Below are positions 1-14,618 of a DNA stretch of 64,000 nucleotides, in pieces (positions within the stretch are counted from its first letter, which is position 1; each line of letters starts with the position of its first letter). Both the position numbers and the translations under genes were made by a program. The DNA comes from Chloroflexi bacterium AL-N1 (GTDB taxonomy: Bacteria; Chloroflexota; Chloroflexia; Chloroflexales; Roseiflexaceae), in NCBI GenBank assembly GCA_013122435.1, contig WYDT01000004.1, positions 372,001 to 436,000 on the forward strand, in the 5' to 3' direction. The notes under the pieces were generated by a model. The model searched no databases. It was not told where the DNA came from and worked only from the letters and a program-made list of their open reading frames with translations.

Positions 1-737
1 GTTGTCACACAAAGTTTTTCAAGAAAAAAGTCCCCCAGATCGAATAGTCGAATTTCTTTTGCAGATGGTGCTCCAGCAAGCATCGAGCTATAAAAGAGCT
101 TGCGCCGTTCATCAAGGCTGTACGCAAACACCATTTGCAGTTGTTGCTGGACTAAACGTAAATCAATAAAGAGTCTCGGTATAACCGAAAGAATAATCAG
201 TCCTGCCAAGAGAAAATGGAATGATATAAGCGTCCCGATGAAACTTATCAGCGCCACGAGATTTTCCAGAAGTCGTGTTAATGCAGGTAATGTTTCTTGT
301 GCACTACTAAGGGCACCCTGCTCTGCAAGACGAATGGTATCGTAAATCTGCGGGTTCTCAAACGGTGCTAATCCTGACAGATCATTGATTTTGGTATAAA
401 CATCCCGCTGAATTTGCAATTCTAGCCGTCGTCCTAATTCACTCTGTAGATAGGTATTTACTGCAGTCAAGAGTGCCGCGGTTACAGTTATGAGTGCTTG
501 GGCTATCAGAAGTACATAAAGCATTTCTGGTGTTACTGATACTGGATCGGTAAGCCGTAGTGAAAGCCAGTCAAACAGCATCTTGAGAATAAGCGCATTG
601 GCAAGCGGTACAAGACCCTGAAGTATCGTGATGCATAAAGAACCAACGGAAGCTAATGGATACACACGGCAGACCAATGCAAGAATTTGGAAAATAGTAA
701 CAACAAACTTTTGTGACGTTTCGGGTTTAGCGACCAT
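1..737 (-). CDS. ABC exporter, transmembrane domain (partial)
   Basis: This is the N-terminal part, about 245 residues, of a protein running off the left edge. The ATG at 735-737 is preceded by an AAGGA ribosome site about 9 bases upstream. The translation has hydrophobic helices at about residues 12-55 and 72-95, the conserved segment LAPFENPQIYDTI, and then two further hydrophobic helices. This is the order of the membrane domain of ABC multidrug/peptide exporters. The ATPase domain would lie outside the window. There is no C39 leader-peptidase domain at the N-terminus, so any leader removal needs another protease. It is divergent from the ATP-grasp operon, and I infer that it exports the mature peptide. 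Confidence 0.8.
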   Translation of the reverse strand, partial: MVAKPETSQKFVVTIFQILALVCRVYPLASVGSLCITILQGLVPLANALILKMLFDWLSLRLTDPVSVTPEMLYVLLIAQALITVTAALLTAVNTYLQSELGRRLELQIQRDVYTKINDLSGLAPFENPQIYDTIRLAEQGALSSAQETLPALTRLLENLVALISFIGTLISFHFLLAGLIILSVIPRLFIDLRLVQQQLQMVFAYSLDERRKLFYSSMLAGAPSAKEIRLFDLGDFFLEKLCVT

Positions 738-2211: not shown

Positions 2212-3120
2212 ATGACGCCTTTGAGTATACCGCAACTCGCTCAACTGCGAAAACTACGGGGAAATCCTATAATGCTGTACTCTGCGGGAATTGCAGATGA
2301 TAGTATTCCTATCTTCTATGAATGCTTACGACGGGAAGGTCATCCCAAACGGCTAGATCTTATTTTGTCCACATCCGGGGGCAGCATTCTGGCTACGCGC
2401 AGAATTGCGCTGCTCCTACGCGAGTACGTGGAACACCTGACTATCCTGGTACCCTACCGGGCCTGGTCGGCAGGTACATTACTTGGATTGTCCGCAAATG
2501 AACTTGTTTTGGGACCATTATCAGAACTAAGCCCTATTGATGCAAATAATAATTCAGCAAGTATGAAGGCAACAAATGAGCCGTCAAGCGTTTCAGCAGA
2601 AGAAGTTCGCATGTTTCAACAGATGGCTGCAGATTGGTTTGGTGTCACCCGCGACCAGGATCGGTTACAAGTTCTGGCACTCGTTGCCCAACGCTTTTTC
2701 CCCACGTCGCTCTGCGCCATCTATCGCTCGGCACAACTTGTCAATCGCATTGCCAATGAGCTACTGGCCTACCAATTACCCGAAACCAATCCTACTACCA
2801 GACAAAACATTGTGGATCAATTAATCAGCGCATACTATGATCATAACTATCAGATTACACGCCAAGAAGCACGTACACTTGGGTTAAACATTCAGTATGC
2901 TACGCCGGAGGAAGAGCAACTCCTATGGGATATCTGGCAAAAATGCGACACCTTTATTACTCCTGATGCCGCTGACCCTGACCCGGAACGGAATATTATG
3001 GGCATTCTTATGGGGGAGCAATGCTTCGCGCAACTGAAACGTGATTGGAATCCCACATCTCAATGGAGTGATCAAGACAACCCATTCGATGGGCTAAACG
3101 TCACCTGGGAGATGCACTAG
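2212..3120 (+). CDS. SDH-family ClpP-fold serine protease
   Basis: This 302-aa soluble-looking protein resembles the serine dehydrogenase proteinase family (ClpP/crotonase fold, related to SppA). The oxyanion segment LILSTSGGSIL is at 50-60. The putative nucleophile is Ser86 in RAWSAGTLLGLSA, followed by LVLGPLSELSPIDA at 98-111, matching the family pattern SAGT...GP.S.L.PID. No signal peptide or membrane helix is visible. It follows the ATP-grasp gene by 79 bases and precedes the MauE-like gene by 52. Because the exporter lacks a peptidase domain, I infer that this protease may cleave the leader of the modified peptide. The family assignment is firm and the role is a guess. Confidence 0.75.
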   Translation: MTPLSIPQLAQLRKLRGNPIMLYSAGIADDSIPIFYECLRREGHPKRLDLILSTSGGSILATRRIALLLREYVEHLTILVPYRAWSAGTLLGLSANELVLGPLSELSPIDANNNSASMKATNEPSSVSAEEVRMFQQMAADWFGVTRDQDRLQVLALVAQRFFPTSLCAIYRSAQLVNRIANELLAYQLPETNPTTRQNIVDQLISAYYDHNYQITRQEARTLGLNIQYATPEEEQLLWDIWQKCDTFITPDAADPDPERNIMGILMGEQCFAQLKRDWNPTSQWSDQDNPFDGLNVTWEMH

Positions 3121-3172: not shown

Positions 3173-3724
3173 ATGACCGAAACTTATAGTATGCTCTTTT
3201 GTCGTACGGCTATTGTGATCGTCTTCACACTGTCAGTTCTCGGGAAAATGCACAATGTAAACGGATTTCGAGAATCAATTATCGACTTCCGGTTAGTGCC
3301 ATCACAGTGGGCAGGCGCAATTGCCTGGGGTTTTCTGATTAGTGAAGCTCTGGTGGTGGTATTCGTGCTGCTTGGTGGCACTGCCTTGCTGATTGGCATG
3401 GGACTGGCAGCCAGTTTGCTGCTGCTATTTGCAGTAGCATTAACGGTTGTTATATGGCGCAAACAGAGGGTGCACTGTAACTGCTTTGGTCGTAATACCC
3501 AATGGGTTTCGCCTTATGATGTGATACGCAATATCGTGCTTATCTGCTGTGCATTGTACGGTTTTGTTCTTGCAAATACAGTAGCAGGCCACAACACTTT
3601 TTCTTTATCTATCGCTGAGATCGTGCTGGTACTGGCAAGTGCGGTTAGTTTCGTTGCTCTTGTAACAAATCTGGCAGATATTATCGAAACACTACGTCAA
3701 CCAATTAATACCGGACAGGAATAA
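3173..3724 (+). CDS. MauE/DoxX-like redox membrane protein
   Basis: This 183-aa protein has four or five predicted membrane helices and the signature CNCFG at about 100-104, just after the third helix. That motif marks the MauE/methylamine-utilisation redox membrane family, which supports disulfide formation in extracytoplasmic proteins, classically with thioredoxin-like MauD. A strong AAAGGAGG site precedes the ATG. The next gene, 12 bases downstream, is a membrane-anchored thioredoxin, which reproduces the MauE-MauD pairing. No methylamine dehydrogenase genes are present. With Cys-rich peptide genes nearby, I infer a role in oxidative folding of those peptides. Confidence 0.8.
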   Translation: MTETYSMLFCRTAIVIVFTLSVLGKMHNVNGFRESIIDFRLVPSQWAGAIAWGFLISEALVVVFVLLGGTALLIGMGLAASLLLLFAVALTVVIWRKQRVHCNCFGRNTQWVSPYDVIRNIVLICCALYGFVLANTVAGHNTFSLSIAEIVLVLASAVSFVALVTNLADIIETLRQPINTGQE

Positions 3725-3736
3725 AAGAGGGTCATC

Positions 3737-4357
3737 ATGGATGATATTATGAGTATCAGTTTCATGCTGTTATGGGTTCTGGTGCTGATTCTGCTGGGAC
3801 TGAATCTACGCATGATTCGCTGGTTTCGAGCTATCGATGAACTACAGAAGAAGGCAGACACTAGTGAGGAGATTGCAGTAGGCACACCGGCACCAGATTT
3901 TCGGGCGCAACTGCTTGATGGAACATCCATATCCTTGACAACTTTTCAGAACCGATCAGTTGCTTTTCTGTTTGTTTCACCAAACTGTGGAGCCTGTCAT
4001 GAAATGATACCTATGTTACTGCGATTGGCACCACTGGCAAGAGAGAATGCACAGGTGGAATTTATGCTGGTGAGCGATGCCGATGTAAATGCAACCAACG
4101 CCTGGATGGAAGCCATCGCCGATGTTCGCAATGTTGTAATTGACCTCCCCATCGTTGTAGTACCTCGTGGTAGCTCTCCCTTATTAGAACTGTATAATCC
4201 ACGTGGATATACGCCTTACTACTGCATAATCGATACCACAGCAATAATACAGGCTCGCGGTTCCATCGGTCGTGATGAATGGCATAGTCTCAGAAAATCC
4301 TGGGAAAAAGGAGCAGCAGGAACAACCTCCACACGATTAGCTCGAAAATATTTATAA
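3737..4357 (+). CDS. MauD/TlpA-like membrane-anchored thioredoxin
   Basis: This 206-aa protein has an N-terminal membrane anchor at residues 5-23 and then a redoxin domain: GTPAPDFRAQLLDG near 49-62, the active site SPNCGACHEM (CxxC) near 80-90, and the cis-proline region YTPYYCIID near 153-161. Orientation suggests the domain faces outside the membrane. In mau clusters the MauD homologue works with MauE to form or isomerise disulfides. Here it closes the ATP-grasp operon, with only 12 bases to the MauE-like gene, and is followed by a hairpin terminator. Its substrate is inferred, not shown. Confidence 0.8.
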   Translation: MDDIMSISFMLLWVLVLILLGLNLRMIRWFRAIDELQKKADTSEEIAVGTPAPDFRAQLLDGTSISLTTFQNRSVAFLFVSPNCGACHEMIPMLLRLAPLARENAQVEFMLVSDADVNATNAWMEAIADVRNVVIDLPIVVVPRGSSPLLELYNPRGYTPYYCIIDTTAIIQARGSIGRDEWHSLRKSWEKGAAGTTSTRLARKYL

Positions 4358-4579: not shown

Positions 4580-5370
4580 GAGAGGGCTCGACTGCTTGTA
4601 CGCTGTCGATGATGTTTGTCAAACAGTTGACCCACATGGCATGCGCCGTGTGATCTGAGCAGCGCAAAACAGCACTATCGTGCACGAGAACGTGCGTTGT
4701 GTGCGGTTATGACCAGCTTAATGCTGTTCTATCAGGCCCGCTAGCACACCTGCAAAGCATTCTATCCAGCGCATGGGTGTCAACATCTACACCATGCTCC
4801 AACCCTGCTCAGCTATACGCGCTTTGTCCCGTTCTTTCCTCCCACACACGTGCCGTTAGGAGTCTCTCTGCACTCGTGTTTAGGGGATGTACGGGTAGCT
4901 CCTGTGTCGATGCCACCACATTGGCAGTCTGTCACCATCGGGCTTGGAGCACGGCACGCATTTCGTGGCCAGACGTCAGATGGGTCATTCTGGGGCTTCA
5001 AGTTGCATCTCATAAGAAATCACTGTGGAGAGGTGTTGAACTGCAAGCAATTTGACAACAAGGACGCTCGTTTGCCCCGCTGCCACAACCACGGCACTGC
5101 TACTTTGGGGTCGAGTTGATTACGCTGCGTCGCAACGACATCCCAAGACACGACCTGCCACTTCTGGACAGGATGTGGCGACGCCAGCGGACGATTATTG
5201 AGACGATTATCGACCAACTGAGGCACATCCACAGACTGCACATACACGGCATCACCGTACCAATACCTTCCTGATCCATCTAATCCGTAGGCTGTTTGCC
5301 TTACTGGCATCAACCCAAGCAGCCATATGTGTCAGTCGAGCAATTGCCGCCAGTACTGCGGGCTTAAACC
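4580..5370 (+). mobile_element. IS982-family transposase remnant
   Basis: Broken pieces of an IS982-type DDE transposase lie in several + frames. LDCLYAVDDVCQ near 4588 matches the family N-terminus. CVDATTLAVCHHRA near 4905-4945 is the first-Asp region. FWGFKLHLIRNHCGEVL near 4990-5040 is the core. RRTIIETIIDQL near 5185-5220 is the Glu region. Multiple frameshifts and gaps show it is dead. I could not identify terminal repeats. It separates the modification operon from the two precursor genes, so an insertion and decay event has split the cluster. Confidence 0.7.
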
Positions 5371-5420: not shown

Positions 5421-5454
5421 AAGTATGCCCAGCACAGAAGTGCCGGGCATACTT
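5421..5454 (-). terminator. Hairpin after precursor peptide A
   Basis: A 15-bp inverted repeat with one mismatch (arms 5421-5435 and 5440-5454, 4-base loop) lies 37 bases downstream of the precursor A stop codon. There is only a short T stretch after it on either strand, so it may be a weak or bidirectional terminator. Confidence 0.5.
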
Positions 5455-5490: not shown

Positions 5491-5724
5491 TTACTTATCA
5501 CATTTGTGGCCACCAAAAAATTGTGTACCAAATGTTTTACAATAATTATTAGGACCAGTCAAGCAGTTTAAGCGACCCCAGAATCTATATGAACATTTTG
5601 CTGCCAGACCCGGTTGATCCGCATGCTGCCAGACTTGAGTATCGGGATCATAGGAATTTGTACCACTATCGATATCATCTACTTCAAGCGATTGAGCAAC
5701 ACGAAAGCCAAATAACGTAGACAT
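5491..5724 (-). CDS. Cys-rich RiPP-like precursor peptide A
   Basis: This 77-aa peptide has a perfect AAGGAG site 7 bases before its ATG. It shares an N-terminal half with the peptide encoded just upstream: MS, then F-x-F-R/K-V-A, a shared acidic stretch, YD near 25, QVWQ at 30-33, and AA-K/R-C-S/T-YR at 41-47. The C-terminal half differs between the two but keeps four Cys (here C44, C54, C62, C75) and ends KCD. A conserved leader and variable Cys-rich core are the usual layout of RiPP or bacteriocin precursors. The nearby ATP-grasp, redox, protease and ABC genes support this. I know of no named family for it. Confidence 0.7.
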   Translation of the reverse strand: MSTLFGFRVAQSLEVDDIDSGTNSYDPDTQVWQHADQPGLAAKCSYRFWGRLNCLTGPNNYCKTFGTQFFGGHKCDK

Positions 5725-5825
5725 TATCTATCTCCTTGTAATAACTAATTATAGTCATTCACAAAAATCAAGTTGTGTTAAAACCACAGATCAACTGCCA
5801 TCTATTCACTAAGGTAATGGGGTAA

Positions 5826-5859
5826 TTGATCCGAGAGGTGTCAACACCTCTCAGATCAA
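5826..5859 (-). promoter_or_regulatory. Long hairpin between the two precursor genes
   Basis: A 16-bp inverted repeat with one mismatch and a two-base loop (arms 5826-5841 and 5844-5859) sits between precursor B and precursor A on their coding strand. No T-run follows on the minus strand, so a simple terminator is less likely than an attenuator, a processing site, or a structure stabilising the upstream mRNA. Confidence 0.5.
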
Positions 5860-5902
5860 ACTCTATAAAGTAAGAGCAAGTAGATAGCTGCGACCGATAA
5901 CC

Positions 5903-6139
5903 TTAGTCACATTTTGAACTTGCTGGTGCAAGAAACCAGGGTGCTGGCAGAGTGACACAACGAACGACATTGTAACACTTCCTTGCTGGAATCATTGGTC
6001 TATAAGTACATCGAGCTGCTACAGATGTATCCTGTCCCTGCCAGACCTGTGCTTCGACATCATACTGACCCTCTGGTTGGTTATCGGTTTCTTCGACGGA
6101 CACGGGATGGGCTACCTTAAAAGCGAACATGTTAGACAT
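5903..6139 (-). CDS. Cys-rich RiPP-like precursor peptide B
   Basis: This 78-aa peptide is a paralogue of the 77-aa peptide downstream on the same strand. I start it at the ATG of 6137-6139 because AAGGAGG lies 6 bases before it. A longer reading frame upstream has no ribosome site. The leader shows FAFKVA at 5-10, QYD at 25-27, QVWQ at 31-34 and AARCTYR at 41-47. The core has C44, C55, C61 and C77. Several acidic residues (EE at 16-17) are in the leader rather than the core, unlike most graspetides, so the ATP-grasp product may be unusual. The gene pair is likely transcribed from the 6140-6325 gap. Confidence 0.7.
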   Translation of the reverse strand: MSNMFAFKVAHPVSVEETDNQPEGQYDVEAQVWQGQDTSVAARCTYRPMIPARKCYNVVRCVTLPAPWFLAPASSKCD

Positions 6140-6325: not shown

Positions 6326-9300
6326 CTAGGCATCCGAAGACGGATTTTGACTGTCATGATCAGTTTGCTGCACGATGAAACGAAATAAATGTGCATCTTC
6401 CTGTTCTGCTGCTGGTTGCCGGATATGCTGCTTTCTGGCCTTATTACAACGAGACGTCGAAAGTGTTGGATCTTCCCGACGTAACAGAGCGAGATCCTGC
6501 TCAACAGTACGTTGACCAACACATAGCGCTTCCGCCAGATGTTTTGCGGTAGGAATCGCACCCTGAGTCAGTGCTTCCTGTATTAAACGACGTATACGAA
6601 AGCGCCGACATGCTATCGAATCAGTCATACCCTGATCATCGGGTGCGCGAATCGTCCAGGATACAGTCGTTTGTTCATCATCACGCAACGCCCGTCCGGT
6701 AGGTGCATCAATGCGAGGTAGCACCACTTCAATCTTTTGTGGCTGATAAGCTTCCCATTCCATCACAATAGTGCGATATTCTGGGACATTAGTTACGCTG
6801 GACTGGTAACATGCTGGCGAAAGTCCTGCCAGACATCTCATCAGGGCAGTATATGCCTGTTCAAGCGCCTGATACGCTTGAGCAAAGTTACCTGTGACGC
6901 ACAATACACAATAGTGTGCATAGCACAATTGATAATGTATAGTTTGATCGGATGATACATAGGACATATGCTTTTCTATACGCGCAAGCGCTGCTTCTGT
7001 TTGATTCAGTGCCAGAAGAATATGGCAACGCACTGCCGCCAGGCGAGACCACCAGGGTGTATATGCTCCGTCTTTACATATCGCATCAGCAGTGTCTGCA
7101 TACTCCAGTGCTGCTTCATATTGTCCTGCATCCAGAACAAGTTGTGCCAGTAGCAGATAGGCAAAGAGGTGCGACCATTGACCATAGATACCGATAGGAG
7201 CATGGACTGCCTGGGTAAGATACCTGCAAGCCACATCTCGATTACCTGCATGGTAAGCCAGTGCCCCCAACACAGCATGGCACATTCCGGCAAGATGGAG
7301 ATCATCTGTTTTGTTGATGTAATCCCATATCTGTTCGATATGATGTTGTGCTTGACCGTACATGCCTAAGTAACAACAATGCACAAAGGCGGTGTTCAAA
7401 TGACTCCAGGCAAGCAGTACGGGACATGCCTCCTGACTAATACAATTCCATACTGCTTCACTATAGGTGAACGCCTGACTCACCTGTTCTTGCAGAAAAC
7501 ACGACCAACCACACCAGACAAGAATCTGATGTTCGAGAGCACTATAATCATACGTTTGAGCCATATTCAATGCCCTTTGATAGCATTGGTTCGATTCAGT
7601 AAATTGGTTTTGGGAACAGGCGATGCGTCCTTGTATGAGCAGTGCTTCGGTAAGGGCATATTTCTCATCGAGGTGCTCATATAACACAAGCGCAGTCTTA
7701 CTGTGATAGTCTGCTTGAGAGAGCAGTTGCATAGAGAAGTACAGGGAAGCCAGGGCATTATGGACATGGGCTTCATGTGTTTTAGACAGAGTATTACTGT
7801 TCAAACACTGATCAAGCATAGTTTGCTGACTCATTATCGTCTGAAGCGATGCATTGCGCCAGCAGACAATGCGCGTGAGCGTTGTTACGACCATAATATA
7901 CACCTCCCTATCCTGATCTCCTGTTATTCCTGCCATAATTGTCTGTGCCAGGTCTCCAGCCTCATCAAATCGACCACACATCGCAAGCAACCGTATGCGA
8001 CGTGACTGTATATACCTCATCTTTTCTGGAGCATTACGACAGACACCTTCCAGAAGACTCAGATACTGCTCCTGTCGGTGAAAGTGACCAATTTCGTGTG
8101 CAATGGTGTCATATGTGAGCAGGGTCACAAAGAAGGTTTGCTGATCGAACACCGTATGACCACTTTGCACCAGTGCCAGTGCCGATCGCACATAAAACTC
8201 GGCTGTCAAGGGATATCCACAGGAATAGGCATGCTCACCCGATAACAACAGATATTTAGCGGCCAGCTCCCATACCTGGCCTTGCATAAAATGATGTGCT
8301 AATAGCTCATACTGTTCAATGCCTATAGCACTCAATGCCTTACCTGCACGACGATGAAAGACAACTCTTCGATCAGCGCTTATATGCTCATACACAATAT
8401 GTCGTAACATCGCACAAGGAAAACAATAGCCTGCGACCGTTTCAATGAGTAACCGTTGTTGTACAAGTTGGTTCAGGTAACACAGAGCAGTACTGGTATC
8501 CAGATTACACACTGCCATTAAAACTTTAAAAGGACAGGGTTCTTCTAAAATAGCCATAGCGTCGAGCACACGCCGTATAGGTGGAGGTAAATCAGTGAAA
8601 CGCCGTGTCAGAAGTTGTCGTATGCTTGATGACAGGATCTCTTTTTCAAGAGATTTGATAGTATGTTGTTTTGCAAGTTGCCACAGACCTTGTTCATTGA
8701 TCTGCAGTAGTTGCTGATGATAACACTCGTAAAGAAATTCAATAATAAACAAGGGATTCCCTTGACTTACATGGTATACGCCTTGTGCAAAAGTAGGGTC
8801 AGGTTTTCCAAGATATTTTTGAATGATTTCGCCTGTTGCAGCACTATCCAGACGAGTTAATTCGATATGTACGCTGTGAACACCACGCACTAGTTGTTGC
8901 AACTGTTTCCATAATGATGAGTACCTCAATATATCTTCACAACGATATGCGCCAATAACAACCACAGGATCGTGACACAAATGATCGTGAAAATAGCTTA
9001 AGGACTGCCATACCTTGACATTCACCAGTTGCAGATCATCCAAAATAAGGACGAGGGGTCTGATACGCGACCATGCAGCAAGTAAATGTGCCAATAGTAT
9101 ATATAAAGGTGCTCGTTTGCGAGAAGCAGTATGTGGTAACCGTTCTGTCTGATCCTCTTCCAAGATAGGAAATATCGTGCATAGTATATTCATATACTCA
9201 ACTGGTATAAGACTCGCTAATTGTTCCGCTCGCAAGGGTGTTAACCCCTGTGCAATAGCATCAATAAGCACAGCATAGGGAGAATGTGTATTGGAGGGTT

Positions 9301-10339
9301 TGCCTCTCCCCCATAATACATCTGCACCGCGCCACTGGAGATCTTTCGCAATCTCGCGTATCAACCGACTCTTGCCAACTCCTGCTTCACCCTCAATTAA
9401 CACTATCTGTCCCGTACCTTCAAAAATGCACTCTAGCCATCGTAATAATTGACTGTGTTCATTTGTCCGATGAATTAATGGCAGATCATCCGCAGACTCA
9501 GCGAGTAAAGGACGCTGTACACGTTGAAGGGCTTCAATGTCAGGAAGATATGCGTCCGAGCAACGTTTTGATCTACGTAGAATGTCATCTTTCAGAACAA
9601 CCGTAACTGCATCAGGTCCTAATCCCAATTCTGTGTCAAGCATACGACAACATATGTTGAATTGTTGTAGTGCATCTTCAATCCGTCCCAGTAAACTGTA
9701 CAGACGCATGGCTTCGCAATAGTACTCTTCATGCAAGGGATCAATGCGTAGTAACTGCAATACGCTATCAAGCGCTGCTTCAAAGCGTCCTGACGCCTTT
9801 TCACTAGCTAAAAGACGTTGCAACGTCAAACGATATTTCTCACGCAAACGTTCACGTTCAATTAACACCCAATCATCATAGAAATCTTCTAATAAATCAT
9901 GCGAATAAAGCTGGCAGGCTTGCCGGAGCAATGCAACCTGTGATCGATCTATGACAGGCATGTTGAGCAGTGGATCGACCAGTGACTCGAACAGATGGAC
10001 ATCGATCCATACTGCTGTTTCAGGCTGTATATATAGCGTTTCGTGATCAGACTGAATAAGATCAGGTATATGGCGACGCACGTGCCAGAGCACCTGACTT
10101 AACTTACGGCGCGCCTGATGTTCAGGTAAGTCAGGCCAGAATATACCAATAAGATATAAGCGTGTATGCTTTCTTTGTGCATGAAGCAATAGATAAGCTA
10201 ACAGGGTCTGGGCAGCTAAAGATGTCGGTAGTGTAAGCGAGGTATGGTTGCATTGCAGTATAAATGGTCCAAACAGATGGAAATGGAGCGTAGGCACCCT
10301 ATAATCCTGATGTTGATGGATGCTATGTTTCTGTATCAT
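6326..10339 (-). CDS. BTAD/AAA-ATPase/TPR transcriptional regulator
   Basis: This 1337-aa regulator has an OmpR-like winged-helix region at about 20-95 and a bacterial transcriptional activation domain at about 115-265. A predicted ATPase follows, with P-loop GEAGVGKS near 315-325 and Walker-B-like LVLILDDLQ near 435. A long helical TPR region ends in a second helix-turn-helix, PTAKHLAEALCVGQRT at 1263-1278, then a basic Cys/Lys/Arg tail. GAGGTG precedes the ATG. It resembles SARP/LAL-type pathway regulators that control secondary-metabolite clusters. It is encoded upstream of and on the same strand as the two precursor genes, so it is a good candidate regulator of the peptide cluster. Confidence 0.8.
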   Translation of the reverse strand: MIQKHSIHQHQDYRVPTLHFHLFGPFILQCNHTSLTLPTSLAAQTLLAYLLLHAQRKHTRLYLIGIFWPDLPEHQARRKLSQVLWHVRRHIPDLIQSDHETLYIQPETAVWIDVHLFESLVDPLLNMPVIDRSQVALLRQACQLYSHDLLEDFYDDWVLIERERLREKYRLTLQRLLASEKASGRFEAALDSVLQLLRIDPLHEEYYCEAMRLYSLLGRIEDALQQFNICCRMLDTELGLGPDAVTVVLKDDILRRSKRCSDAYLPDIEALQRVQRPLLAESADDLPLIHRTNEHSQLLRWLECIFEGTGQIVLIEGEAGVGKSRLIREIAKDLQWRGADVLWGRGKPSNTHSPYAVLIDAIAQGLTPLRAEQLASLIPVEYMNILCTIFPILEEDQTERLPHTASRKRAPLYILLAHLLAAWSRIRPLVLILDDLQLVNVKVWQSLSYFHDHLCHDPVVVIGAYRCEDILRYSSLWKQLQQLVRGVHSVHIELTRLDSAATGEIIQKYLGKPDPTFAQGVYHVSQGNPLFIIEFLYECYHQQLLQINEQGLWQLAKQHTIKSLEKEILSSSIRQLLTRRFTDLPPPIRRVLDAMAILEEPCPFKVLMAVCNLDTSTALCYLNQLVQQRLLIETVAGYCFPCAMLRHIVYEHISADRRVVFHRRAGKALSAIGIEQYELLAHHFMQGQVWELAAKYLLLSGEHAYSCGYPLTAEFYVRSALALVQSGHTVFDQQTFFVTLLTYDTIAHEIGHFHRQEQYLSLLEGVCRNAPEKMRYIQSRRIRLLAMCGRFDEAGDLAQTIMAGITGDQDREVYIMVVTTLTRIVCWRNASLQTIMSQQTMLDQCLNSNTLSKTHEAHVHNALASLYFSMQLLSQADYHSKTALVLYEHLDEKYALTEALLIQGRIACSQNQFTESNQCYQRALNMAQTYDYSALEHQILVWCGWSCFLQEQVSQAFTYSEAVWNCISQEACPVLLAWSHLNTAFVHCCYLGMYGQAQHHIEQIWDYINKTDDLHLAGMCHAVLGALAYHAGNRDVACRYLTQAVHAPIGIYGQWSHLFAYLLLAQLVLDAGQYEAALEYADTADAICKDGAYTPWWSRLAAVRCHILLALNQTEAALARIEKHMSYVSSDQTIHYQLCYAHYCVLCVTGNFAQAYQALEQAYTALMRCLAGLSPACYQSSVTNVPEYRTIVMEWEAYQPQKIEVVLPRIDAPTGRALRDDEQTTVSWTIRAPDDQGMTDSIACRRFRIRRLIQEALTQGAIPTAKHLAEALCVGQRTVEQDLALLRREDPTLSTSRCNKARKQHIRQPAAEQEDAHLFRFIVQQTDHDSQNPSSDA

Positions 10340-10645: not shown

Positions 10646-13276
10646 GTGACGCCCAGAAAGGTTACCTTGTCTCTGCATACATTTGGTCAACAACTACGAC
10701 AGTATCGGAAAGCGCACAAGCTTACCCAGGCGACTCTGGCACACCAGGCCGGGTGTGCTGTTTCAACCTTGCGCCACATAGAACATGATCGCCTCCGCCC
10801 TTCACGGCAACTGGCCAAACGACTGGCACACTGTTTCAACCTTGACCCTGATGAGCAACACCGTTTTGTGCAGGCGGCTCGACACGTGTCTCCGTCGAAA
10901 GAAAATACCCGACCTGTGCCCCTACCGCCCCCACCCACTATCCCGGTACCACTCACCCCACTGATCGGGCGTACTGCCGAACGCGCAGTGATTATGGATC
11001 TGTTGCGCCACTCTACCGTACCACTACTCACACTGACTGGTATTGGAGGGGTCGGCAAAACACATCTGGCACTTCAGATTGCCCATGATGTACAGACTGC
11101 ATTTACTGATGGTGTCTGTGTCATTGATCTGGTGGCCGTACATAATCCTCAGTTACTCCTGCCAACGCTTGCTCAGAGCCTGGGCGTGCCTCAAACACAT
11201 GCTCACCATATCTGTAAGCAACTCCAGGCTTACTTACGAACAAAAAGACTTTTATTAGTATTAGATAACTTTGAGCATCTTGTTACAACTGCCACGGTAC
11301 TGTCAGATCTGCTCCACGCAGTACCACAGTTACACATGCTGGTTACCAGCCGAGTACCGCTGAACATTCCTGAAGAGCATCTCATCACGATTGAACCATT
11401 AGCGGTCCCCTCCTCAGCAACAGAGTTGACTCATGACAACATCGTGCAGAGTCCTGCGGTTCAATTGTTTGTCACACAAGCTCAGGCCATTCAACGGCAT
11501 TTTGTCCTGACACCACAGAATAGTGCTATCGTTGCTGCTATTTGCACCAAGGTCGCTGGTATTCCGCTTGCATTGGAACTGGCAGCCGCCCCCCTATCAG
11601 TTTTTTCTCTGGAAGACATCCTGCACTATTTGGAACAACCGCTGCGGTTCCTGAGACATGGACCACATAACGTACCAGACCATCAGAGAAGTTTGCACGC
11701 CACCATAGCATGGAGTTATCACCTGCTGAAACCTGCTGAACAACTACTCTTTGTACGATTAGCCATATTTGCAGGTGAATGGACCCTGGATGCAGTCGAG
11801 CACATTTGTGGCGGGAATCGTACGATGACAGAGCAATGTGATGATGACCACGCTATCCCCCCACTGGAGATCGCTCCAATTGATGGGGTAGCCGCATTGC
11901 TCGATAGTCATCTGATTCTGAGCACGACAACGGTTGATGGTGAAGTGTATTTTAAGATGCTGGTTCCCATTCATCATTATGCTCAGGAACGCTTACAGGG
12001 CCACGAGGCCGCTGTGCTGGCCGCACGGCACACCGCCTACTATCTGGCGCTGGCAGAGCAAGCCGCTTCAGAATTGACCGGAGCCAACCAGCAGGTCTGG
12101 CTGGAGCGGCTGGACGTGGAGTATAACAACCTGCGAGCCGCATTGCACTGGGCCATCGTCCAGCTGCACCCGGAACAGGCACTCCGTCTGGGAAAGGCAC
12201 TCTGGCATTACTGGTATGCGCGGAGTTATCTCCAGGAGGGCTGTCACTGGCTGGAGCAGATTATCGCCCTGGAAGCGGCACCCTCAGCACCTACATATGC
12301 CATGGTTTTAAATCGCTATGGCATATTACATTCGTTGCAAGGAAATCTTGTAGACTCCCAGAACTATCTCGAACAGAGTTTAGTAATAGCACGTCAGTTG
12401 AACGATCAATACACACTTGCGTCGACACTCAACAGTCTAGGAATAATAACGCGCTATCAAGGGGCGTACGATGATGCCATACGCTATCTCGAAGAGAGTC
12501 TGGGACTATATCGGCCTGATGACAATCCTTTAGGGAAGGCATACACACTGAATAATCTAGGTCTTGTCTTGCAAGCACAAGGGCAGTTTGCCTCGGCACT
12601 GGAGCAGTATGAGGCCAGTAAGCTCATCCATCAGGAACTGGGCAATCAGCTTGGGGTGATGAAAGCGCTGAGTAACACAGCCATTGTTGCCTGGCTCCAA
12701 GGTAACCATCTCCAGGCTCATCAACTATTCTCAGAAGCCCTTCAACTGGCACGTGATCTGAAAAATACCGAAGGAATCACCTCTTGCCTCACTCATCTTG
12801 GTAAAGTGGCGATCAGTCAGCAGGATGTTACCACGGCTCAATCTTATTTCTTAGAGAGTTTACACCTTCTGCAAGATCTAGGTGAACTCCAACTGGTGAT
12901 AGATTACCTGGAAGGGGTTGGTGGGGTCTTTGCGATGTGCGATCAGCCATTGATTGCCGCATATCTGTGGGGAACCGAGGCGACCCTCCGTACCACGATT
13001 CACAGTATCAGATCACCTTCCGAAACCCCATTTTACGAGCAGCTGGTAGCGGCAGCACGACACCAGGCGAGTTCAGTTGATTGGGAGGCTGCATGGGCAA
13101 CCGGACAAACGCTTACCATATATGATGTAATGGCTATGCTACCAAAACTTGCTGCATTGTTGAGAATATCTGACGATCAACCTGCTCCCGACTACAACCA
13201 GTTTGCGTCACTCATCAGCGCAAATCTGCATCATCAACCTATCACAGGTATAACCAACATTCATCATGAACTATGA
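10646..13276 (+). CDS. XRE-HTH / NB-ARC ATPase / TPR regulator
   Basis: This 876-aa protein combines an XRE helix-turn-helix at about 12-70 (LRQYRKAHKLTQATLAHQAG...STLRHIEHDR), a proline-rich linker at 90-106, and an NB-ARC ATPase with P-loop GIGGVGKTH at 132-140 and LLLVLDNFEHL near 205-215. A TPR superhelix runs from about 530 to 760. The GTG start has GGAGG closely upstream. Such fusions are signal-transducing regulators in which nucleotide and TPR ligand binding gate DNA binding. Its target is unknown. The next gene, 10 bases downstream, is a decaying paralogue, so the pair arose by duplication. Confidence 0.8.
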   Translation: MTPRKVTLSLHTFGQQLRQYRKAHKLTQATLAHQAGCAVSTLRHIEHDRLRPSRQLAKRLAHCFNLDPDEQHRFVQAARHVSPSKENTRPVPLPPPPTIPVPLTPLIGRTAERAVIMDLLRHSTVPLLTLTGIGGVGKTHLALQIAHDVQTAFTDGVCVIDLVAVHNPQLLLPTLAQSLGVPQTHAHHICKQLQAYLRTKRLLLVLDNFEHLVTTATVLSDLLHAVPQLHMLVTSRVPLNIPEEHLITIEPLAVPSSATELTHDNIVQSPAVQLFVTQAQAIQRHFVLTPQNSAIVAAICTKVAGIPLALELAAAPLSVFSLEDILHYLEQPLRFLRHGPHNVPDHQRSLHATIAWSYHLLKPAEQLLFVRLAIFAGEWTLDAVEHICGGNRTMTEQCDDDHAIPPLEIAPIDGVAALLDSHLILSTTTVDGEVYFKMLVPIHHYAQERLQGHEAAVLAARHTAYYLALAEQAASELTGANQQVWLERLDVEYNNLRAALHWAIVQLHPEQALRLGKALWHYWYARSYLQEGCHWLEQIIALEAAPSAPTYAMVLNRYGILHSLQGNLVDSQNYLEQSLVIARQLNDQYTLASTLNSLGIITRYQGAYDDAIRYLEESLGLYRPDDNPLGKAYTLNNLGLVLQAQGQFASALEQYEASKLIHQELGNQLGVMKALSNTAIVAWLQGNHLQAHQLFSEALQLARDLKNTEGITSCLTHLGKVAISQQDVTTAQSYFLESLHLLQDLGELQLVIDYLEGVGGVFAMCDQPLIAAYLWGTEATLRTTIHSIRSPSETPFYEQLVAAARHQASSVDWEAAWATGQTLTIYDVMAMLPKLAALLRISDDQPAPDYNQFASLISANLHHQPITGITNIHHEL

Positions 13277-13286
13277 GGTGGCTGCA

Positions 13287-14618
13287 ATGGCATCGATGTC
13301 ATTTGGACAACTCGTACGCCAGTACCGCAAAGCACGGGATCTCACCCGCGTAAAATTTGCCGATCAACTGGGCTATGCCACCTCAACCCTGCGCCATATT
13401 GAGAATGATACGTTACAACCATCTCAGCATCTGCTTAAACGACTCTGTGTTGTCTTACAGATGTCACCTGAAGAACAAGCACTACTGCTGCGTACAGCAC
13501 AAAACACTACACCTATTGATATTACACATATCGCTCCAGCACTAGTTCCTACCAATCTCACCACCACCATCCCTCTGGTGGGACGCGATGAAGATATGAT
13601 TACTATCAATGACCTGCTGCACCAACCCGAAGTCCGCCTAATCACATTGACAGGTGTGGGAGGTGTCGGGAAAACCAGTTTGGCCAGACAGATCGCAACC
13701 CAGATAGTGCCAGACTTCGCGGATGGAGTCTTTCTCATTGATTTAGACAACCTATCTGATTCGCAAATGCTCGTCCCGAGTATCGCACGCGTAATGGGTA
13801 TTGGAGCACCGTATACATCAATTTCAATAACCGACCTGCACACCTATCTGTATCATAAACATGCGGTGTTGATCCTGGATAACTTTGAAAAATTCCTTAC
13901 AGCAACCACCCTGTTAACAGATCTGCTCCAGCAGGTTCCCTATCTCCGTCTGCTGGTAACTAGTCGCGTTCGCTTACATATCAAGGGTGAACACGTAGTT
14001 TTGGTAAAGCCCTTCACGGTTCCTGAGCTTGATCGATTGCCTTCCCTTGAGTCCTTGATCACCATGCCAGCAATCACACTATTTGCGAATCAGGCACAGA
14101 TTGCACAACCAACCTTCGCTATTACAGCCACCAATGCAGAACTGGTTGCCAGAATCTGTGTACGAGTTGCCGGAATACCACTGGCATTGAAAGTAGTTGC
14201 GTCCCGTTTGACAACCATGTCTCTGGAACAGATTCTCACATCGCTTGATCAACATCATCAGTCGGGTAATACCATTTCTACATCTAGCCTGTTGATGGAA
14301 ACTGGTATGCGGGATGCCCTTGATTGGAATTATCACAATCTAGATTCAACCAGTCAATCCTTATTTATGCAGGTAGCACTTTTTGCTGATGAGTGGACCA
14401 TGGAAGCACTGGAAAGCATCGTGATACGTCCAACATCAGTGAGTCACCAGCACCAGACAGATCATTGGCTCCTGCTTAAACACCTAACCATGCTGTGTGA
14501 GGCACATTTAGTACAATCAATAACCCTTCCAGATGGAAGCACACGCTTTTTCATGCTTGAACCTATTCGTGATTATGCGTTGGAACGAGGAAGACAACAC
14601 CTCACACAAGAGAAATAG
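13287..14618 (+). CDS. XRE/NB-ARC regulator paralogue, truncated by nonsense
   Basis: This is the N-terminal part, about 443 residues, of a paralogue of the preceding regulator: XRE domain (LVRQYRKARDLTRVKFADQL, STLRHIENDT), P-loop GVGGVGKTS, and VLILDNFEKF. I start at the ATG of 13287 because GAGGTG lies 8 bases upstream. An ATG at 13266 overlaps the previous gene and has no clear site. A TAG at 14616-14618 ends the frame. The same frame continues as recognisable TPR sequence to about 15107 with two more stops. The truncated product would have HTH and ATPase but no TPR sensor, and is likely non-functional or mis-regulated. Confidence 0.7.
   Translation: MASMSFGQLVRQYRKARDLTRVKFADQLGYATSTLRHIENDTLQPSQHLLKRLCVVLQMSPEEQALLLRTAQNTTPIDITHIAPALVPTNLTTTIPLVGRDEDMITINDLLHQPEVRLITLTGVGGVGKTSLARQIATQIVPDFADGVFLIDLDNLSDSQMLVPSIARVMGIGAPYTSISITDLHTYLYHKHAVLILDNFEKFLTATTLLTDLLQQVPYLRLLVTSRVRLHIKGEHVVLVKPFTVPELDRLPSLESLITMPAITLFANQAQIAQPTFAITATNAELVARICVRVAGIPLALKVVASRLTTMSLEQILTSLDQHHQSGNTISTSSLLMETGMRDALDWNYHNLDSTSQSLFMQVALFADEWTMEALESIVIRPTSVSHQHQTDHWLLLKHLTMLCEAHLVQSITLPDGSTRFFMLEPIRDYALERGRQHLTQEK

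What the first reader, a model, noticed from the sequence alone, without database searches (positions are those of the whole stretch)
5491..6139. Leader-conserved, core-variable paralogous peptide pair
The two 77-78 aa products share F-x-F-K/R-V-A, YD, QVWQ and AA-K/R-C-S/T-YR in fixed positions. Their last 30 residues diverge except for Cys count and the final KCD. This is what selection on a leader and diversification of a core produces. Neither core is rich in the Thr/Lys/Asp/Glu residues used by most graspetides, so ATP-grasp chemistry here may be different or target the conserved YD/QVWQ region.
Basis: partly seen in the sequence, partly recalled or inferred. Interest (0 to 1): 0.7.

Follow-up and report, generated by a model that had tools for sequence, protein, structure and literature searches.

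The report
Cysteine-rich ATP-grasp peptide precursor pair
Two small neighbouring genes encode precursors of a modified peptide, with a fixed 'address label' in front and a fast-changing cysteine-rich product behind; relatives in other bacteria show that the same label is used with a peptide-ring-closing enzyme, and that the cysteine-rich form always comes with its own protease and, usually, disulfide-forming genes, a combination I found in no survey I could read.

Summary
The two minus-strand genes (5491-5724, 5903-6139) are real, each with a strong Shine-Dalgarno and a shared downstream terminator, and are homologous mainly in the N-terminal ~45 residues. Leader searches found 13 further precursors: five in the same genome, the rest in other Chloroflexota and a Deinococcus plasmid. 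Wherever the contig is long enough, an MvdD-type ATP-grasp gene (whole or broken) lies beside them. In a tandem pair elsewhere the leader shows 1 nonsynonymous and 11 synonymous changes, the tail 43 and 24, with all six cysteines kept. So 'leader conserved, core diversified' is shown.

Two core types share the leader. Cys-rich cores (4-8 Cys, even in 11 of 12) occur only with a cassette of ClpP-fold SDH protease, MauE and membrane-anchored CxxC redoxin; Cys-poor Thr/Asp cores occur without it. Best reading: a graspetide-type RiPP whose leader recruits the ATP-grasp, whose core is probably disulfide-bonded after export and, where the ATP-grasp is intact as here, may carry one Ser/Thr-Asp ester. 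In two loci the ATP-grasp has lost its catalytic residues. The conserved YD/QVW region looks like a recognition element, not the modified site. New variant of a known kind; chemistry untested.

The parts
5903..6139 (-). precursor P2, 78 aa, leader 1-~43, Cys tail (4 Cys, ends KCD)
   Evidence: ORF and translation; SD AAGGAGG; homologues
5491..5724 (-). precursor P1, 77 aa, leader 1-~43, Cys tail (4 Cys, ends KCDK)
   Evidence: ORF; SD AAGGAG; homologues
5421..5454 (-). intrinsic-terminator-like hairpin (15 pairs) downstream of P1
1104..2132 (+). MvdD-type ATP-grasp ligase, catalytic residues intact
   Evidence: PF21068 55 bits (cut-off 27), TIGR04187 E 1.2e-76 but below its curated cut-off; aligns with solved CdnC and microviridin ligases
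2212..3120 (+). ClpP-fold SDH-type serine protease
   Evidence: PF01972 E 1.3e-15; AlphaFold pLDDT 81, Foldseek to ClpP 3.5e-7; S86, D110, H211 invariant in 8 homologues
3173..3724 (+). MauE-like membrane protein, 4 predicted TM, CNCFG
   Evidence: PF07291 E 6e-24
3737..4357 (+). MauD-like redoxin, one N-terminal TM, CGAC
   Evidence: PF08534/PF00578, TIGR02661 weak
1..737 (-). 5' part of an ABC exporter gene (rest lies outside the window), no C39 peptidase domain found
   Evidence: L010:8740-10638, Pfam
4850..5274 (+). decayed DDE transposase between the operon and the precursors (not part of the system)
   Evidence: PF13612 on two frames
6326..10339 (-). SARP/AAA/TPR regulator just upstream of P2, possible regulator
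   Evidence: PF03704, PF13191; role inferred from position only

Best explanation
P1 and P2 are precursors of a leader-guided, cysteine-rich graspetide-type RiPP. (1) The conserved N-terminal ~45 residues (F-x-F..V..G-x-YD-x3-Q-V/L-W-x-G..A-A/G) are the recognition leader of the neighbouring MvdD-type ATP-grasp [family association shown; binding inferred]. (2) The ATP-grasp, whose catalytic residues are intact here, probably makes a single side-chain ester (or amide), most likely between the Ser/Thr after the first Cys and the Asp after the last Cys [inferred]. (3) The ClpP-fold SDH protease removes the leader, probably near the conserved A-A/A-G doublet before the first Cys [inferred]. (4) The ABC exporter moves the peptide out and the MauE/redoxin pair joins the four cysteines outside the membrane [inferred from families, CxC/CxxC motifs, topology and co-occurrence]. 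The product is probably a secreted, compact antagonistic or signalling peptide [inferred].
For: Leader profiles hit short genes that lie beside an ATP-grasp wherever the contig reaches that far, in Chloroflexota and Deinococcus. Leader 1 nonsyn/11 syn versus tail 43/24 in the G041 pair, all 6 Cys kept. ATP-grasps with this leader form one branch, 92/91. SDH homologues of this type: 7 loci at 289 bits or more in 400 Chloroflexota genomes, next group at most 158 bits, plus one in G041; 7 of the 8 lie next to a Cys-tailed precursor of this leader family, the eighth next to another Cys-rich protein. MauE with CxCFG and redoxin with TM plus CxxC in all six loci where both are complete. Precursors with Cys-poor cores lack the cassette nearby, and G038 (100% complete) has no such SDH anywhere. 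Even Cys number in 11 of 12 tails, p = 0.003. Literature: graspetide leaders track ATP-grasp phylogeny while cores vary (PMC8939145); mauE/mauD with precursors of at least 8 Cys were flagged as RiPP candidates in Streptomyces (PMC7794033).
Against: No chemistry is shown. The window tails have only two acidic residues each, one of them the final Asp, so a graspetide ring is barely possible, and two sister loci (L008, L028) keep the whole cassette with an ATP-grasp that has lost conserved K, R, D and N, so ring formation is not needed for the system as a whole. The window's precursors are convergent with the operon and separated from it by a decayed transposase. The C-S/T...C-D pattern was noticed after the fact and rests on few independent loci. 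The ATP-grasp scores below NCBIfam's curated cut-offs.
Confidence: 0.68

Rival explanations
1. Disulfide-only RiPP: in the Cys-rich branch the ATP-grasp has become (or is becoming) a non-catalytic leader-binding escort that delivers the precursor to the SDH protease and exporter; the only covalent modification is disulfide pairing.
For: L008 and L028 ATP-grasps lack the conserved K (R), ELR (RLY) and D..E-x-N (T or Q; E kept or A; D), yet keep the WWRRP and CYWMS motifs and sit in complete clusters with four and one precursors; they form one lineage in two orders (100/100). All four L008 tails and the L028 tail lack the final Cys-Asp.
Against: The window, G377 and C8b (L026) enzymes keep every one of these residues, which implies that catalysis matters there.
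Confidence: 0.2
2. One reading: the ATP-grasp modifies the conserved YD/QVWQ region itself, and the Cys tail is a carrier.
For: Y, Q and W are the most conserved positions.
Against: Equally conserved before Cys-less Thr/Asp cores (Deinococcus, G038) and with degenerate ATP-grasps; D is N in L026; YD and Q absent in L059. Near-zero dN while the tail changes fits recognition.
Confidence: 0.05
3. P1 and P2 are not substrates of this operon but an unlinked peptide pair controlled by the adjacent SARP regulator.
For: Opposite strand, transposase remnant in between, regulator next door.
Against: The same convergent arrangement with a ~100 bp gap and no transposase is seen in G041, and the co-directional order precursor - ATP-grasp - SDH - MauE - redoxin in G222 and G377, with an ABC gene and a DsbA-like gene inserted in G000 C8.
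Confidence: 0.05

Closest known systems
Graspetides (microviridin, chryseoviridin CdnC, plesiocin PsnB, TgmB/fuscimiditide ThfB)
   Same: MvdD/TIGR04187-type ATP-grasp beside short precursors with conserved leader and variable core; Cys-poor members of the same leader family have Thr/Asp/Glu cores
   Different: No PFFARFL or RPFG leader, no isoaspartyl methyltransferase, no C39-type exporter found; Cys-rich core with almost no acidic residues; SDH protease and MauE/redoxin cassette; some loci with degenerate ATP-grasp
Streptomyces mauE/mauD candidate RiPP families (decRiPPter, PMC7794033)
   Same: MauE (and MauD) homologues next to precursors with at least 8 Cys, outside methylamine metabolism
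   Different: The paper's text treats ATP-grasp families as a separate group, and I saw no SDH/ClpP-like protease in the passages read; whether the sequences are related was not tested
Pfam PF14404 (Strep_pep, actinobacterial ATP-grasp RiPP precursors such as TgmA)
   Same: Weak match over residues 4-40 of three of the precursors (best E 0.019, below the cut-off); shared YD..Q element
   Different: 14 to 15.5 bits against a cut-off of 25; profile comparison with three TgmA sequences not significant; different core, no aspartimide enzyme
Methylamine dehydrogenase maturation (MauE, MauD)
   Same: MauE family with CxC and membrane-anchored thioredoxin-like partner thought to serve disulfide formation
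   Different: No mau structural genes seen nearby; the substrate would be a small peptide

Membership tests
RiPP precursor pair | leader conserved, core diversified between paralogues | tested here: met
   (contrast in the G041 pair, Fisher p = 0.0004)
RiPP precursor pair | encoded with modifying enzyme, protease and exporter | tested here: met
Graspetide | ATP-grasp of the MvdC/MvdD/TgmB group with intact catalytic residues | tested here: met
   window enzyme aligned with solved CdnC and microviridin ligases; residues intact in window, L025, L026, L032, not in L008, L028. Below the NCBIfam curated cut-offs, above Pfam's
Graspetide | core with Thr/Ser/Lys and Asp/Glu in a pattern that allows ester/amide rings | tested here: inconclusive
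   window cores carry a conserved C-terminal Asp and a Ser/Thr after the first Cys: about one ring at most; Deinococcus and G038 relatives are Thr/Asp-rich
Graspetide | macrolactone/macrolactam in the product | not testable with these tools
   needs co-expression and mass spectrometry
Microviridin (group 1 graspetide) | PFFARFL leader motif | tested here: not met
   sequences
TgmA / PF14404 | match above Pfam cut-off | tested here: not met
Disulfide-bonded peptide | paired cysteines formed by a dedicated oxidase | tested here: inconclusive
   even Cys counts 11 of 12 and cassette association; no direct evidence
Radical-SAM thioether, lanthipeptide or thiazole RiPP | radical SAM, lanthipeptide synthetase or YcaO gene near the precursor | tested here: not met
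   Pfam/NCBIfam scans of the operon genes show none; other ORFs of the loci were only read by eye

The most novel reading that the evidence does not exclude
A RiPP lineage in which the ATP-grasp ring-closing enzyme is being turned into a non-catalytic leader-binding escort while the product switches from ester rings to disulfides, so that Thr/Asp graspetides, hybrid ring-plus-disulfide peptides and disulfide-only, possibly knottin-like peptides all carry the same leader.
Probability: 0.3. Interest if true: 0.8.

Novelty: new variant of a known kind. Interest (0 to 1): 0.6.

Why it matters
It would join two ways of stiffening a secreted peptide, side-chain esters and disulfides, in one leader-guided pathway, add a ClpP-fold protease and a MauE/redoxin pair to RiPP maturation, and offer a natural series (intact versus degenerate ATP-grasp behind the same leader) for asking how a modifying enzyme becomes a carrier. 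It also gives a leader profile with which more such clusters can be found; Pfam and NCBIfam have no model above threshold for these precursors.

Tried and rejected
Profile searches of Pfam and NCBIfam for the precursors: nothing above threshold. SDH profile against PDB sequences: no hit; settled by fold comparison instead. Genome-contig scan with the SDH profile found only the G041 record, so the family is rare or poorly sampled. hhalign of the leader against three TgmA sequences: not significant. Squash-knottin reading of the G222 core (C-x5-C-x5-C-x3-C-x-C-x6-C): PDB sequence match not significant, single-sequence AlphaFold model too poor (pLDDT 55); kept only as a lead. Plasmid search with SDH: only distant homologues, below 30% identity. 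Herpetosiphon plasmid ATP-grasp: no leader-family precursor found beside it. Synonymous/nonsynonymous counts on P1 versus P2 themselves were not attempted because they are too divergent.

Full report
Observation. They share MS-x-[L/M]-F-[G/A]-F-[K/R]-V-A, YD, QVWQ and AA[K/R]C[S/T]YR, four Cys each, and a final KCD (P1 has one more Lys). BLASTP of the pair gives E 8e-11. With shuffles, the part up to the Trp scores z = 10.1 and the rest 4.9, of which most is Cys (2.3 with Cys masked). Each start codon follows a strong Shine-Dalgarno, and a 15-pair hairpin of terminator type follows P1. They are genes.

Relatives. A weaker one in G163 (L059) came from scanning the locus found with the SDH profile. 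A tblastn search with the ATP-grasp led to a Deinococcus wulumuqiensis plasmid in which the ORF just before the ATP-grasp reads MKNLFAFHVGKPADQGNIVNVEGHYDAEAQVWIGNTDATASNTSTVTEIKYYTNPGGVYDGKQADSDTENA: the same leader before a Cys-free Thr/Asp/Glu/Lys core. Of 400 Chloroflexota genomes only two had a hit with A3, and of 158 of the class three with A6: the family is rare.

Leader versus core. The cleanest test is the G041 tandem pair: codons 1-34 have 11 synonymous and 1 nonsynonymous difference (dN 0.013, dS 0.76), codons 35-84 have 24.25 and 42.75 (dN 0.54, dS 1.28), with all six Cys retained; Fisher p = 0.0004 on the rounded counts. This is one pair, but it is direct evidence of constraint on the leader and relaxed or diversifying change in the tail.

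Two core types, one leader. Cys-rich tails (4 to 8 Cys; 11 of 12 even, p = 0.003 under a coin-toss model, with paralogues not independent; background Cys in the window's proteins 1.3%) occur in the window, L008, L024, L026, L028, L032 and L059. All seven loci carry an SDH-type protease, and six carry MauE with CxCFG and a redoxin with one N-terminal membrane helix and CxxC; in L059 MauE is decayed. The Cys-poor precursors of L025 and Deinococcus L061 have the ATP-grasp but no SDH or MauE nearby, and G038 has no such SDH anywhere in its genome; L071 is a 5.3 kb contig and says little. In 400 Chloroflexota genomes the SDH profile gives seven loci at 289 bits or more and nothing between 158 and 289; the G041 copy makes eight. 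Seven of the eight lie beside precursors of this leader family, the eighth (L060) beside a different Cys-rich 284-aa protein, an ABC fragment and a small CxxC ORF. So the cassette tracks Cys-rich peptides, not the leader as such.

ATP-grasp. The window enzyme matches PF21068 and aligns over its full length with solved CdnC and microviridin ligases. It scores below the NCBIfam curated cut-offs. Enzymes with this leader form one branch (92/91) against TgmB, MvdC/D and a Herpetosiphon enzyme. Residues conserved in the solved enzymes, K in 'IYKVLS', R in 'ELR', and D, E, N in 'SAMDFI...FLENNPNGQ', are intact in window, L025, L026 and L032 but changed in L008 (R, RLY, T, E, D) and L028 (R, RLY, Q, A, D); these two form a 100/100 pair although they come from different orders. 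That these residues bind ATP and metal is general knowledge of the ATP-grasp fold, not tested here. Noted after the fact: the last Cys is followed by Asp in the window (2), L024 (2) and L032, and never in L008 (4) or L028; the L024 contig ends before its ATP-grasp, so its state is not known there, and the independent loci are few.

Protease and redox. The SDH protein folds like ClpP (AlphaFold pLDDT 81; Foldseek E 3.5e-7, TM 0.65 normalised to the target). S86, D110 and H211 are invariant in eight homologues; a catalytic triad of these three is inferred. The ABC exporter shows no C39 peptidase domain in Pfam, so the SDH protease is the obvious candidate for leader removal; a small A-A/A-G/V-G doublet lies just before or near the first Cys in most members. 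L008 has one more DsbA-like protein with CAAC.

Literature. The graspetide surveys that I could read describe leaders that follow ATP-grasp phylogeny while cores vary, and the sections read list associated families without MauE or membrane redoxins (PMC8939145; PMC13097080, where over half of group 9 contain a serine proteinase). decRiPPter flagged Streptomyces mauE/mauD clusters with precursors of at least 8 Cys as candidate RiPPs (PMC7794033). I found no paper combining these. The held library lacks many subscription papers, so absence there is weak evidence.

Verdict. Precursor pair with leader/core logic: shown by comparison. Link to ATP-grasp and cassette: strong by co-occurrence. Disulfides, ester ring, cleavage and export: inferred. 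The YD/QVWQ-as-substrate idea is disfavoured.

Noticed in passing
L060:6789-10702 (G000:C2): A 284-aa protein with a Cys-rich, hydrophobic C-terminal region sits with a small CxxC ORF, an ABC transporter fragment and a fourth SDH-type protease, without ATP-grasp or MauE; no Pfam or NCBIfam hit. Looks like another Cys-rich secreted peptide using the same protease.
   Followed up: partly
L028:4911-5129 (G222): Core SCTLAPPCHLDTECPEGCRCIPLLNACFGL has a Cys spacing close to that of squash-type knottins (C5C5C3C1C6C); sequence and fold tests were inconclusive.
   Followed up: partly
L025:8737-9078 (G038): Same leader followed by six or so TDGYG-type repeats, apparently a multi-core Thr/Asp graspetide precursor.
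   Followed up: no
window 10646-14618: Two adjacent XRE/NB-ARC-type regulator genes beside the cluster; the first resembles TPR proteins annotated in other RiPP clusters (HaaT, FxSxx-TPR) far below cut-off.
   Followed up: no
window 4850-5274: Decayed DDE transposase between the redoxin gene and the precursors; the homologous G041 locus lacks it.
   Followed up: yes
L026:13810-14652 (G000:C8): A thioesterase-domain gene directly follows the SDH protease in the third ATP-grasp locus.
   Followed up: no
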